In this document: positions 1-8,726 of the stretch, one piece after another
Numbering within the stretch: position 1 is the stretch's first letter
Layout of the letters: each line of letters starts with the position of its first letter
Assembly: GCA_003694465.1 (NCBI GenBank)
Contig: RFKM01000215.1
Location: forward strand, 1-8,726
Direction: 5' to 3'
DNA: 8,726 bases
Source of the DNA: Alphaproteobacteria bacterium
GTDB lineage: Bacteria > Pseudomonadota > Alphaproteobacteria > Rhodobacterales > Rhodobacteraceae
Program-made: the position numbers and the translations under genes
Notes under the pieces: generated by a model
Database searches by the model: none
The model's input: only the letters and a program-made list of their open reading frames with translations
What the model was told of the DNA's origin: nothing

Positions 1-1244
1 GCGTAGTCCGAGGCCGCCATGCCGCCGTCGACTCGCAGCGGCGCGCCTTCGGGCAGGTCGGGCCAGTCGGCACGCATCGCCGAAACGAGGTCGGTGGTCT
101 GAAAGCCCACCGCCTCGAGGGCGGCGCGGGCAAGCTCGTTCGGGCCGGTGTTGCGGGTCAGCCCGAACAGGGCGCCGCGGCAGGCGCTGTCCCACCACGG
201 GGCGCCGAGGCCGGTGAAGGCGGGCACGAGGATCACCTCCTGCTGCGGGTCGGCGGCCCGGGCCATGGCGCCGGTTTCGGCGGCGGAGCTCACCACCCCG
301 AGCCCGTCGCGCAGCCATTGCACCGCCGCCCCGGCGATGAAGATCGACCCTTCCAGCGCATAGGTGGTCTTGCCGTCCAGCCGGTAGGCGATGGTGGTGA
401 GCAGACGGTTTTTCGAGCGCACCGGGGTTTCGCCGGTGTTGAGCAGGGCAAAGCAGCCGGTCCCGTAGGTCGATTTCATCATCCCCGGTGCGAAACAGGC
501 CTGCCCGACGGTGGCGGCCTGCTGGTCGCCGGCAACGCCGAGAATCGGGATCTCTTCGCCGAGCAGCGCCGCATCGGTGGTGCCGAAATCGTCGGCGCAA
601 TCCTTCACCTCGGGCAGAAGCGCGGCGGGGATGTCGAGCAGGGCGAGGATGTCTTCGTCCCAGCGCCCGGCGTGGATGTCATAGAGCATCGTGCGGGCGG
701 CATTGGTGGCGTCGGTGGCATGAACCCGCCCGCCGGTGAGGCGCCAGATCAGGAAGCTGTCGACGGTGCCGAAGGCCAGTTCGCCGGCCTCGGCGCGGGC
801 GCGCGCGCCGGGCAGGGTGTCGAGCAGCCACTTGAGCTTGGTGGCCGAGAAATACGGGTCGAGCAGCAGGCCGGTGCGCGCCGTGAACAGCTCTTCGTGG
901 CCGGCCTCGCGCAGCGCCGCGCAGGTGTCGGCGGTGCGCCGGTCCTGCCAGACGATGGCGTTGTGCAGCGGCTTTCCGGTGGCGCGATCCCACAGCAGCG
1001 TCGTCTCGCGCTGGTTGGTGATGCCGATGGCCCGCACCGCGCCTTGCGGGACGGCGGCGAGCGCCTCGCGGCAGGTGTCGAGGGTGGTCTGCCAGATGTC
1101 TTCGGGGTCGTGCTCGACCCAGCCGGAGCGGGGGAAATGCTGGGCGAATTCGCGCTGCGCGCTGGCCACCGGCGTGAGCGCGGCGTCGAAAACGATGGCA
1201 CGGCTCGAGGTGGTGCCCTGGTCGATGGCGAGAACGTGGCTCAT
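1..1244 (-). CDS. glpK: glycerol kinase, C-terminus cut by the window edge
   Basis: Cytoplasmic glycerol kinase of the FGGY family: phosphorylates glycerol with ATP to sn-glycerol 3-phosphate, the substrate of the GlpD encoded just upstream. I translated the minus strand from ATG at 1244 and found an open frame to the window edge, 414 complete codons of an enzyme usually near 500 residues, so about the last 80 residues are missing. Visible hallmarks are the N-terminal phosphate-binding segment DQGTTSSRAIVFD (from residue 8), GITNQRETTLLWD (near residue 73), GVAGDQQAATVGQ containing the expected catalytic Asp (residue 240, matching Asp245 of the E. coli enzyme by motif), the adjacent MKSTYGTGCF, and DGGMAASDY near the cut end. 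The start codon overlaps the glpD stop in an ATGA junction (1241-1244), so translation is probably coupled. Nothing in the visible part suggests decay. Identification is firm; whether the gene is intact to its end cannot be seen. Confidence 0.96.
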   Translation of the reverse strand, partial: MSHVLAIDQGTTSSRAIVFDAALTPVASAQREFAQHFPRSGWVEHDPEDIWQTTLDTCREALAAVPQGAVRAIGITNQRETTLLWDRATGKPLHNAIVWQDRRTADTCAALREAGHEELFTARTGLLLDPYFSATKLKWLLDTLPGARARAEAGELAFGTVDSFLIWRLTGGRVHATDATNAARTMLYDIHAGRWDEDILALLDIPAALLPEVKDCADDFGTTDAALLGEEIPILGVAGDQQAATVGQACFAPGMMKSTYGTGCFALLNTGETPVRSKNRLLTTIAYRLDGKTTYALEGSIFIAGAAVQWLRDGLGVVSSAAETGAMARAADPQQEVILVPAFTGLGAPWWDSACRGALFGLTRNTGPNELARAALEAVGFQTTDLVSAMRADWPDLPEGAPLRVDGGMAASDY

Positions 1245-2734
1245 GCGGCCTCCTCGGTGGCTTGTTTCATCCAGTCGTCGACGGCCTTCGCCCCGTCCGC
1301 GTCAAGGCGCAGGCCAAGCTTCGTGCGCCGCCAGAGCACGTCTTCGCCGGTTCGGGCAAATTCGTTCTGGGCGAGATAGCGCAGTTCGGCCTCGGTGAGG
1401 GTGGCGCCGAAATCGCGCCCGAGGTCGCCCGGCTGGCGGGCGGCGCCGAGCAGGGCGCGGGCGCGGGTGCCGTAGGTGTGCACCAGCCGCTCGGCCCAGG
1501 CCTGGTCAAGGAAGGGATAGTCGGCGCGCAGCGCGGCGGCGAGGGCCGGGGCGCCGTCCCACGGAAAATCGCCGCCCGGCAGCGCAACCCCCGCCGTCCA
1601 GCCGCCCGTGTGGCCGAGCTTGTGCATCGCCGCTTCGGCGAGGCGCCGGTAGGTGGTGATCTTGCCGCCGAAGACGTTGAGCAGCGGGGCGCCGCTTTCG
1701 TCGAGCGAGAGCACGTAGTCGCGCGTTGCCTCGGTGGCCGAGGAGGCGCCGTCGTCATAAAGCGGGCGCACCCCGGAATAGCGCCAGACGATCTGTTCGG
1801 GCGTCACCGGCTCGCGGAAATATTCGGAGACGAAATCGCACAGGTATTGCGCTTCCTCGTCGGTGCAGCGGGCGGCCTCGGGGGCGTCGTGATGGTCGAC
1901 ATCGGTGGTGCCGATGAGGGTGAAATCGCGCTCGAAGGGAATGGTGAAGACGATCCGCCCGTCGGCGCCCTGCAGGATATAGGGCTGATCGTGGTCGTAG
2001 AGCCGGGGCACGACGATATGGCTGCCGCGCACGAGGCGCACGCGCTCGCGGCTCTTGACGCCCGAGAGCGCCCCGGCCAGCATCTCGCCCACCCAGGGGC
2101 CGGCGGCGTTGACGAGGACGCGCGCCCGGTGGACGGTCTGGCTCCCCGTGGCTTCGTCTTCCACCGTCACCGCCCAGAGGTCGCCCGCGCGCTCGGCATG
2201 GGTGACGCGGGTGCGGGTCAGGATCGTTGCGCCCCGGTCGGCGGCGTCGCGGGCGTTGAGCACCACGAGGCGGGCATCCTGCACCCAGCAGTCGGAATAT
2301 TCGTAGCCGATGGTGAAACTGTCCTTCAGCGGCGCGCCGACCGGATCCTGCCGCAGCTTCACCGTGCGCGTCGGCGGCAGGATCTTGCGCCCGCCGAGGT
2401 GGTCGTAGAGGAACAGCCCCGTGCGCAGCATCCAGCGCGGGCGCAGGCCGCGGTGATAGGGCAGAACGAAGCGCATCGGCCACGAGATGTGCGGCATCGC
2501 CCGGACCAGCACCTCGCGCTCTGTCAGCGCCTCGCGCACGAGGCGGAACTCGTAATATTCGAGGTAGCGCAGCCCGCCGTGAAACAGTTTCGACGAGGCC
2601 GAGGAGGTGCCCTGGGCGAGATCGCCCTTTTCGGCGAGGGTCACCGACAGGCCGCGCCCGGCCGCGTCGCGGGCGATGCCGCAGCCGTTGACGCCACCTC
2701 CGATGATGAACAGATCGACGGGATCAGCGCTCAT
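1241..2734 (-). CDS. glpD: aerobic glycerol-3-phosphate dehydrogenase (FAD)
   Basis: Membrane-associated flavoprotein that oxidises sn-glycerol 3-phosphate to dihydroxyacetone phosphate and passes electrons to the quinone pool. The 497-residue product is close to the E. coli GlpD length (about 500). It opens with a Rossmann FAD site, GGGVNG at 12-17 with the acidic end at Glu35, followed by the family block GTSSASSKLFHGGLRYLE (42-59), and keeps the C-terminal domain ending in EDVLWRRTKLGL (464-475). The ATG at 2734 is preceded by GGAG six bases upstream, which supports this start. The stop overlaps the glpK start by four bases. A 122-base gap separates it from the ABC ATPase upstream, the largest gap inside this operon. 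With GlpK it turns glycerol into a glycolytic intermediate; with no glycerol facilitator in view, glycerol may arise inside the cell from the imported galactoside. A long antisense open frame over this gene is a GC-rich shadow. Confidence 0.96.
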   Translation of the reverse strand: MSADPVDLFIIGGGVNGCGIARDAAGRGLSVTLAEKGDLAQGTSSASSKLFHGGLRYLEYYEFRLVREALTEREVLVRAMPHISWPMRFVLPYHRGLRPRWMLRTGLFLYDHLGGRKILPPTRTVKLRQDPVGAPLKDSFTIGYEYSDCWVQDARLVVLNARDAADRGATILTRTRVTHAERAGDLWAVTVEDEATGSQTVHRARVLVNAAGPWVGEMLAGALSGVKSRERVRLVRGSHIVVPRLYDHDQPYILQGADGRIVFTIPFERDFTLIGTTDVDHHDAPEAARCTDEEAQYLCDFVSEYFREPVTPEQIVWRYSGVRPLYDDGASSATEATRDYVLSLDESGAPLLNVFGGKITTYRRLAEAAMHKLGHTGGWTAGVALPGGDFPWDGAPALAAALRADYPFLDQAWAERLVHTYGTRARALLGAARQPGDLGRDFGATLTEAELRYLAQNEFARTGEDVLWRRTKLGLRLDADGAKAVDDWMKQATEEAA

Positions 2735-7954: not shown

Positions 7955-8726
7955 CCGATTGCTGGCGGCTGGACGACGGGCGCCAGAGCCTCGTGCTCGG
8001 GCTGCGCGAGGGGGGGCTGGCCGAGGTGCTCTACTGGGGCGCGCGCCTGCCCGACGGCGAAGACCTCGCCGCCCTCGCCGCCGCCGGCGAGGCCGACGTC
8101 ACCGGCGGGATGCTCGATGCCAACCCGCCGCTGTCGATCTGCCCGGAGAGCGCGCGCAGCTTTCCCGGCCAGCCGGGGATGCGCCTGCGCGCCGCCGACG
8201 ACGGCCGGCCGCTGGCGCCCGACTTCCGCCTCGTCGAGGCGGCCGAGGAAGGCCCGGGGCAGGTCGCCTTTCTCTGGCGCGACGCAAGCCTCGGCGTTGC
8301 CTATGGCGCGCGCTTCGCGATCGACGCCGAAACCCACATGATCGAGGCCCGGGCGTGGCTCGAGTCCGAGCGCCCGGTGCTGCTCGACTGGCTCGCCGCC
8401 CCGGTCTTTCCTGCCCCGCAGGAGGCGGTGGACATGATCGATTTCGCCGGGCGCTGGTGCGGCGAATTCCAGCCGGTGCGCAGCCCGTGGAGCGCCGGCA
8501 TCCGCCTGCGCGACAACCGCACCGGGCGCACCGGGCACGAACATTTCCCGGCGCTGATCGTGCCGGGGCGCGGCGCCACAAACACCGCCGGCAACGCCTG
8601 GGCCTTTCATTACGGCTGGTCGGGCGGGCACGGGATGGTGGCCGAAGAGCTGCCCGACGGGCGCCGGCAGGTGCAGTTCGGCCATGCCCCCGGCACCGAA
8701 ACCGCGCCGCTCACACGCTTCGAGAC
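7951..8726 (+). CDS. GH36-type alpha-galactosidase, N-terminal part only
   Basis: Glycoside hydrolase predicted to remove terminal alpha-linked galactose in the cytoplasm. I translated the frame from ATG at 7951: it stays open to the window edge for 258 codons of an enzyme usually near 700, so only the N-terminal beta-sandwich domain and the linker are seen. Support comes from the family landmarks of that domain: LAEVLYWGARLP near the start, then DFAGRWCGE (164-172), PVRSPWSAGIRLRDNRTGRTG (175-195) and H-EHFPALIV, and AWAFHYGWSGGH (216-227). The catalytic barrel, with the nucleophile Asp in its KWDxN-type motif, lies beyond the edge. There is no signal peptide. It overlaps the second permease by four bases, so it belongs to the transporter operon. 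Alpha-N-acetylgalactosaminidase activity is a possible alternative within the GH36 clan. Domain assignment is good; substrate is inferred. Confidence 0.85.
   Translation, partial: MTDCWRLDDGRQSLVLGLREGGLAEVLYWGARLPDGEDLAALAAAGEADVTGGMLDANPPLSICPESARSFPGQPGMRLRAADDGRPLAPDFRLVEAAEEGPGQVAFLWRDASLGVAYGARFAIDAETHMIEARAWLESERPVLLDWLAAPVFPAPQEAVDMIDFAGRWCGEFQPVRSPWSAGIRLRDNRTGRTGHEHFPALIVPGRGATNTAGNAWAFHYGWSGGHGMVAEELPDGRRQVQFGHAPGTETAPLTRFE

What the first reader, a model, noticed from the sequence alone, without database searches (positions are those of the whole stretch)
1..8726. Possible alpha-galactosylglycerol (floridoside-type) catabolic locus
Seen: a GH36-type alpha-galactosidase without signal peptide sits in the same operon as a sugar binding protein and two permeases, and the only ATPase in view is cotranscribed with glpD and glpK across a shared control region. 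Known: alpha-galactosidase releases galactose from alpha-galactosides, and GlpK plus GlpD convert glycerol to dihydroxyacetone phosphate. Inferred: a substrate made of galactose and glycerol, such as floridoside, isofloridoside or a galactolipid-derived galactosylglycerol, explains why these genes are together. Raffinose or melibiose would not call for glpK and glpD. I do not recall a described operon of this exact make-up and cannot check the literature here.
Basis: partly seen in the sequence, partly recalled or inferred. Interest (0 to 1): 0.72.

Follow-up and report, generated by a model that had tools for sequence, protein, structure and literature searches.

The report
Galactoside operon with glycerol genes attached
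A bacterium related to marine roseobacters carries a common type of operon, predicted to import and split galactose-containing compounds, with two glycerol-use genes in the rare position beside it, which would likely let the cell use both halves of galactose-glycerol compounds such as the head groups of algal membrane lipids.

Summary
The gene set is real. The window is one whole contig of a 74%-complete MAG: glpK(cut)-glpD-ATPase-IclR read leftwards; binding protein-permease-permease-GH36(cut) read rightwards. Three other contigs of the MAG very likely continue the right-hand operon: GH36 end-galT-galK-galactose dehydrogenase-dgoK-dgoA-lactonase-GH42 beta-galactosidase. The core is a known kind: Roseobacter litoralis 'cluster 1' (PMC3141670) lists the same genes, without glp. 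Of 153 nonredundant loci with this binding protein, many cut short, 128 show both an alpha- and a beta-galactosidase, so a purely alpha-galactoside substrate such as floridoside does not explain the locus. glp genes stand in the ATPase directon in 5 of 118 loci with a divergent ATPase, including two gammaproteobacterial MAGs with another arrangement; about 0.1 would be expected by chance. Best reading: a general galactoside operon which in a few lineages has taken up glpK/glpD, likely because galactosylglycerols are imported. Digalactosylglycerol, the head group of the algal galactolipid DGDG, fits alpha-galactosidase + beta-galactosidase + galactose pathway + glycerol genes best. Ligand, regulation and flux are untested.

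The parts
3..1244 (-). glpK, glycerol kinase, cut by the contig end (414 aa seen); only GlpK copy found in the recovered MAG (another FGGY-type match is 29% identical)
   Evidence: (TIGR01311 595.5 bits, cut-off 590.35)
1241..2734 (-). glpD, aerobic glycerol-3-phosphate dehydrogenase; overlaps glpK by 4 nt; only copy found in the MAG; 74% identical to the glpD of the Shimia biformata cluster
   Evidence: (NF008899 764.5 bits)
2735..2856 (.). 122-nt gap between ATPase and glpD; no copy of the operator-like motifs within 5 mismatches
2857..3921 (-). ABC ATPase of the galactoside transporter (MalK/UgpC type); up to 79% identical to the ATPases of glp-less galactoside loci (L037)
3941..4726 (-). 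IclR-family regulator
4811..4826 (.). operator-like palindrome 1 (minus-strand match, 2 mismatches); motif within 3 mismatches in 76 of 105 IclR-SBP intergenic regions, shuffled 0.4%
4831..4847 (.). operator-like palindrome 2, GTCTCAATATTTGGAAC (1 mismatch); motif within 2 mismatches in 49 of 105 regions, shuffled 0%
4882..6117 (+). periplasmic galactoside-binding protein (CUT1, AcbH type) with a signal peptide by reading
6208..7104 (+). ABC permease 1
7106..7954 (+). ABC permease 2
7951..8724 (+). GH36 alpha-galactosidase, N-terminal 258 aa, cut by the contig end; very likely continued in frame on contig C293 (L002), which holds the KWDHN and SDSNDALER motifs

Best explanation
The window holds one end of a galactoside uptake-and-breakdown operon of a common alphaproteobacterial kind (function predicted from its gene families), to which glpD and glpK stand joined on the ATPase side, likely so that galactosylglycerols, most likely the digalactosylglycerol head group of algal galactolipids, would be used completely. 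Proposed mechanism: the AcbH-type binding protein and the CUT1 permeases with the ATPase import the galactoside (predicted from family). Cytoplasmic GH36 takes off the alpha-galactose and GH42 the beta-galactose (predicted from family; GH42 is on another contig). GalK/GalT and galactose dehydrogenase-lactonase-DgoK-DgoA degrade galactose (predicted; no galactonate dehydratase or GalE identified). GlpK and GlpD turn the glycerol left over into dihydroxyacetone phosphate (established chemistry of these families). IclR would control both directions from the shared region (inferred). Shown here: gene identities, gene order, the recurrent alpha+beta pairing, and the above-chance recurrence of glp genes. 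Not shown: the ligand, regulation, flux, and physical joining of the four contigs.
For: Gene set. Continuation on C293, C350, C356: a 9-nt in-frame overlap with one mismatch inside GH36 matching the relatives' alignment, a 142-nt overlap at 97.2% in galK, and C350's lactonase continuing as a lactonase end (3.5e-11 to a relative's lactonase) before GH42 on C356. Relatives keep this order. Alpha- and beta-galactosidase both in 128 of 153 loci; in 51 of 60 with a visible downstream end. glp in the ATPase directon in 5 of 118, four besides the window against 0.08-0.17 expected. Two gammaproteobacterial MAGs have glpK (L009) or glpD (L020) between IclR and ATPase, a different arrangement. On the GlpK tree Marinovum's linked copy groups with other GlpKs away from the rest (100/95), and at least two changes of linkage, gains or losses, are forced. 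Shimia biformata has a second glpK elsewhere, so its cluster copy is extra. The ATPase directon also takes up other pathway genes (DgoD, GH2, Gfo/Idh, 11 each). The binding protein is closest to AcbH by sequence and fold.
Against: 113 of 118 divergent-ATPase loci show no glp genes in the directon (10 of the 113 cut short), and none of the 40 loci, one per genus, shows a glp gene in the stretch. glpK occurs in 387 of 390 genomes of the order, so its presence is no test. In the window MAG glpK and glpD are the only copies recovered: they may be the housekeeping genes, simply lying here. No operator-like motif before glpD. The binding protein is highly conserved across glp-linked and unlinked loci, so nothing marks a special ligand in the glp-linked ones. 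The GlpK tree is poorly resolved and does not prove separate recruitments. No lipase was sought. Nothing in the sequence distinguishes digalactosylglycerol from a mixture of alpha- and beta-galactosides.
Confidence: 0.48

Rival explanations
1. A general galactoside operon (galactose, lactose, melibiose, raffinose-type sugars and other alpha- and beta-galactosides). The glp genes are the housekeeping copies, parked or co-regulated here in a few lineages, with no galactosylglycerol meant.
For: 113 of 118 loci show no glp in the directon; glpK is nearly universal; single glpK and glpD in the recovered MAG; the sole glpK found in the Marinovum and L009 genomes lies in the cluster; R. litoralis cluster 1 was described as putative galactose degradation, without glp (PMC3141670, passages and table read).
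Against: Linkage in the same directon recurs in different arrangements and two classes, 24 to 48 times the chance expectation if loci are independent; Shimia biformata keeps a second glpK elsewhere.
Confidence: 0.36
2. One reading: a dedicated alpha-galactosylglycerol (floridoside, isofloridoside) locus.
For: GH36, transporter and glp genes together; no signal peptide on GH36 by reading, so the galactoside should enter intact.
Against: A beta-galactosidase is in view in 135 of 153 loci of the family and is in this MAG; the core operon is found in rhizobia too, not only in marine or algal strains.
Confidence: 0.12
3. The ATPase with glpD-glpK is a separate glycerol or glycerol-3-phosphate uptake unit, unrelated to the galactoside half.
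For: The ATPase passes the NCBIfam model UgpC (462.7 against 432), which however covers many CUT1 ATPases (recalled).
Against: The same ATPase, up to 79% identical, sits beside IclR and the binding protein in loci without glp genes; there are no separate glycerol permeases in view.
Confidence: 0.03

Closest known systems
Roseobacter litoralis OCh149 'cluster 1', putative galactose degradation (RLO149_c015710-c015810; PMC3141670, Table 3)
   Same: ATPase, IclR, galactoside-binding protein, two permeases, RafA alpha-galactosidase, short-chain dehydrogenase, DgoK, DgoA, lactonase, BgaB beta-galactosidase, in the order met in many relatives here
   Different: no glpD-glpK and no galT-galK listed there; the window organism has both
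AcbH, solute receptor (PDB 3oo6-3ooa)
   Different: about 31% identity; its origin in an Actinoplanes acarbose cluster and its beta-D-galactopyranose ligand are recalled, not read here
Rhizobial version of the locus (e.g. L048, L050-L056)
   Same: binding protein, two permeases, GH36, ATPase, GH42 in one operon
   Different: AraC/MelR-type regulator instead of IclR and ATPase within the operon; no glp in view
Sulfoquinovosyl glycerol uptake (SmoF, PDB 7nbz and others)
   Same: CUT1 uptake of the glycerol-linked sugar from a plant or algal glycolipid; works alike in the proposed reading
   Different: binding protein only distantly related (4.7e-8 against 8.1e-63 for AcbH); the enzymes differ (recalled)

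Membership tests
Galactoside cluster of the R. litoralis cluster 1 kind | IclR and ATPase divergent from binding protein and two permeases | tested here: met
Galactoside cluster of the R. litoralis cluster 1 kind | alpha-galactosidase directly after the permeases | tested here: met
   GH36 N-terminal part in the window; C-terminal part with catalytic motifs (motif names recalled) on C293
Galactoside cluster of the R. litoralis cluster 1 kind | dehydrogenase, DgoK, DgoA, lactonase and beta-galactosidase downstream | tested here: met
   found on C350 and C356 of the MAG, joined by overlap and synteny, not by reads
CUT1 ABC sugar importer | SBP_bac_1, two BPD_transp_1 permeases, MalK-type ATPase with OB domain | tested here: met
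AcbH-type galactose receptor | sequence and fold nearest to AcbH | tested here: met
AcbH-type galactose receptor | binds a beta-D-galactopyranosyl ligand | not testable with these tools
   no ligand coordinates; AcbH paper not held
Floridoside (alpha-galactosylglycerol) catabolic locus | only alpha-galactosidase activity needed | tested here: not met
   beta-galactosidase in view in 135 of 153 loci and present in this MAG
Floridoside (alpha-galactosylglycerol) catabolic locus | glp genes conserved with the galactosidase operon | tested here: not met
   5 of 118 loci
De Ley-Doudoroff galactose pathway | galactonate dehydratase | tested here: inconclusive
   best IlvD-type match in the MAG 35% over its main stretch; MAG 74% complete; DgoD type not searched
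Leloir pathway | GalK, GalT and GalE | tested here: inconclusive
   GalK by Pfam and GalT by similarity on C293; GalE not searched in the MAG
GlpK-GlpD glycerol catabolism | both enzymes pass their family cut-offs | tested here: met

The most novel reading that the evidence does not exclude
A complete catabolic route for deacylated chloroplast galactolipid: digalactosylglycerol (and monogalactosylglycerol) is imported by an AcbH-type ABC transporter, stripped by GH36 and then GH42, its galactose fed into two pathways at once and its glycerol into GlpK-GlpD, with glycerol genes drawn into the operon more than once. It would be the galactolipid counterpart of the known sulfolipid head-group (sulfoquinovosyl glycerol) pathway, and the glp-less loci of the order would run the same route with glpK elsewhere.
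Probability: 0.3. Interest if true: 0.68.

Novelty: new variant of a known kind. Interest (0 to 1): 0.42.

Why it matters
Galactolipids are among the most abundant membrane lipids of algae and plants (recalled), yet among the listings I saw there was no paper on bacterial uptake of their galactosylglycerol head groups (searches; open-access library only; two searches listed 15 of 50 and 10 of 163 hits). The locus is widespread: 228 of 390 genomes of the order have the binding protein at E <= 1e-120. A single ligand test on one protein would tell whether a very common operon is a galactolipid head-group route or plain galactoside use.

Tried and rejected
Rejected: an alpha-only substrate (beta-galactosidase in view in 135 of 153 loci). 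Rejected: a separate glycerol-3-phosphate transporter (same ATPase in glp-less loci). Not settled: the number of times glp genes joined. The GlpK tree (40 rows, 33 of them background; 17 of 35 inner branches open) forces at least two changes of linkage, counted against the three 'near' rows only, and these may be gains or losses. For GlpD, window and Shimia are sisters only at 88/71, below the tool's star. Uninformative: co-occurrence of glpK with the locus, since glpK is in 387 of 390 genomes. Led nowhere: papers on AcbH (21 hits, 10 listed, none on the receptor's structure), on the Sinorhizobium lac and agp systems (0 papers), on GapMind (0), and on floridoside in bacteria. The Sinorhizobium homologue (43%) and that (40%) sit in a locus with a ROK regulator and did not help.

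Limits of the counts. The chance estimate treats loci and genes as independent and assumes 2-4 glp genes among 3700; shared ancestry makes the true probability larger. My gene calls come from a codon-usage script, not a standard gene finder; starts are rough. With the window that makes 158; five duplicates were dropped. An alpha/beta count that I made first (124 of 134) admitted loci either because their downstream end was visible or because GH42 was seen, which favours GH42; I replaced it by counts without that choice: both in 128 of 153 (neither 9, only alpha 9, only beta 7), and for the 60 with a visible downstream end both in 51 anywhere in the stretch (neither 3, only alpha 1, only beta 5) and in 50 within the two directons. 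The operator motifs were drawn from an alignment of 15 of the gaps and then counted in 105 gaps that include those 15, so the count is partly circular.
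Full report
WHAT IS IN THE WINDOW. The window is the whole of contig C306 (8726 nt) in a 1.96-Mb assembly of 380 contigs, 74.5% complete. It holds, leftwards from the middle, IclR, a MalK/UgpC-type ATPase, glpD and glpK (cut), and rightwards a CUT1 binding protein, two permeases and the first 258 residues of a GH36 alpha-galactosidase (cut). 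Gaps on the left run are 19 nt (IclR-ATPase), 122 nt (ATPase-glpD) and a 4-nt overlap (glpD-glpK). ARAGORN finds no tRNA.

THE REST OF THE OPERON. Contig C293 carries the missing 440 residues of a GH36, then galT and galK. Its start overlaps the window end by nine bases with one mismatch, and the two parts meet in frame where the relatives' proteins show no missing residues. The motifs KWDHN and SDSNDALER (recalled as the GH36 catalytic motifs) are present. Contig C350 overlaps the end of C293 by 142 bases at 97.2% inside galK and continues with a galactose-dehydrogenase-like SDR, DgoK, DgoA and an SMP-30 lactonase. Contig C356 begins with the last 48 residues of a lactonase (best match 3.5e-11 to a relative's lactonase), followed by a GH42 beta-galactosidase 73% identical to that of Shimia biformata. 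No reads were available, so contiguity rests on overlap and on the gene order of relatives. The mismatches at contig ends suggest strain mixture as the cause of the breaks. A close IlvD-type galactonate dehydratase was not found in the MAG (best 35%).

RELATIVES. A scan of one genome for each of 84,980 species with the binding protein gave 80 loci (the best of 538). Further loci came from a draw of 390 genomes of the same order, of which 228 have the binding protein at E <= 1e-120, and from one gammaproteobacterial family (14 of 116 at E <= 1e-150). After dropping five duplicates, 153 loci were compared. The family is a galactose operon: GH36 or GH4 alpha-galactosidase, GH42 or GH2 beta-galactosidase, and De Ley-Doudoroff genes (families identified on examples). 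Both kinds of galactosidase are in view in 128 of 153 loci (alpha in 137, beta in 135), although many loci are cut short; among the 60 whose downstream end is visible, both occur in 51, and at least one galactose-pathway gene in 46. Three loci have neither although their end is visible (L018, L031, L118). Roseobacter litoralis 'cluster 1' in PMC3141670 (passages and Table 3 seen through) is the same cluster, described in 2011 as putative galactose degradation; the table lists no glp genes in it.

THE GLYCEROL GENES. In 118 loci the ATPase is divergent from the binding protein; in 11 of them, the window included, that directon runs off the stretch. In five of the 118, glpK or glpD stands in the same directon: the window (ATPase-glpD-glpK), Shimia biformata L004 (same), Marinovum algicola L005 (ATPase-glpK), and two gammaproteobacterial MAGs with the gene between IclR and ATPase, L009 (glpK) and L020 (glpD). 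Three more loci have glp genes elsewhere in the stretch (L016, L058, L100). The 118 directons hold 156 genes besides IclR and ATPase; with two to four glp genes per 3700, 0.08-0.17 would be expected against four loci observed besides the window (Poisson P 2e-6 to 3e-5). This ignores shared ancestry. The GlpK tree forces at least two changes of linkage, gains or losses, and is otherwise poorly resolved. Shimia has a second glpK elsewhere (the same genome has two matches). Against this, glpK is in 387 of 390 genomes of the order, glp-linked loci are a small minority, none of the 40 one-per-genus loci shows a glp gene, and the MAG's glpK and glpD are the only copies recovered.

REGULATION. Two palindromes in the IclR-binding-protein gap recur in relatives: the first within three mismatches in 76 of 105 gaps (shuffled 0.4%), the second within two in 49 of 105 (shuffled 0%) (the motifs were drawn from 15 of these gaps). 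The window has them at 4811-4826 and 4831-4847; there is none within five mismatches before glpD. If glpD-glpK respond to the galactoside, it would be by read-through.

READING. The combination alpha-galactosidase + beta-galactosidase + galactose pathways + GlpK + GlpD is what digalactosylglycerol (alpha-galactose on beta-galactose on glycerol, the DGDG head group; structure recalled) would need, gene by gene. A mixed diet of alpha- and beta-galactosides explains the core equally well and leaves only the recurrent glp genes to explain. I give the galactosylglycerol reading 0.48, the plain galactoside reading 0.36 and floridoside alone 0.12. The recount lowered the pairing figure but did not change these odds.

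NOVELTY. The core operon is known in print. I saw no description of the glp-joined form or of bacterial galactosylglycerol uptake in the listings of searches (open-access library, some lists capped); that is weak evidence of absence. PMC5928181 (passages) reports galactosylglycerol as a metabolite that rises in a red alga grown with a bacterium, which is background only.

Noticed in passing
L084 and L085 (G315, contig C4): Two copies of the operon about 45 kb apart on one 73-kb replicon (same coordinates as the Sulfitobacter sp. S190 plasmid NZ_CP081123); in one copy GH36 is called as two pieces and no full DgoK is called, which suggests decay or a sequencing error.
   Followed up: no
(G302, G054, G163, G034, G260, G113, G059, G221, G235, G218): In at least ten genomes of the order glpK lies 17-54 kb from the binding-protein gene on the same contig, nine of them in two genera (g7, g24): a looser neighbourhood than in the window. 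Both match lists were capped.
   Followed up: no
L100: glpD-glpK stand next to the GH2-DgoD-Gfo/Idh run of the galactoside locus, facing it; the genome (G055) has a second glpK elsewhere.
   Followed up: partly
L101 and L103: Loci with an epimerase-family gene (GalE-like), galT and galK beside the De Ley-Doudoroff or GH42 genes; L101 has both galactose pathways in one run, as predicted for the window organism.
   Followed up: partly
L009, L010, L011, L013, L015, L020 and others: The operon occurs in gammaproteobacterial genomes, mostly at 74-81% binding-protein identity (13 of 14), and L009's GlpK falls among alphaproteobacterial GlpKs: likely transfer of the locus between classes.
   Followed up: partly
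L201 (Phaeobacter inhibens plasmid pDOK1-1-2): A homologous transporter at 66% identity sits beside genes annotated as alpha-glucosidase/alpha-galactosidase, sulfatase-like hydrolase and cellulase-family hydrolases, so the family may also serve sulfated galactans.
   Followed up: no
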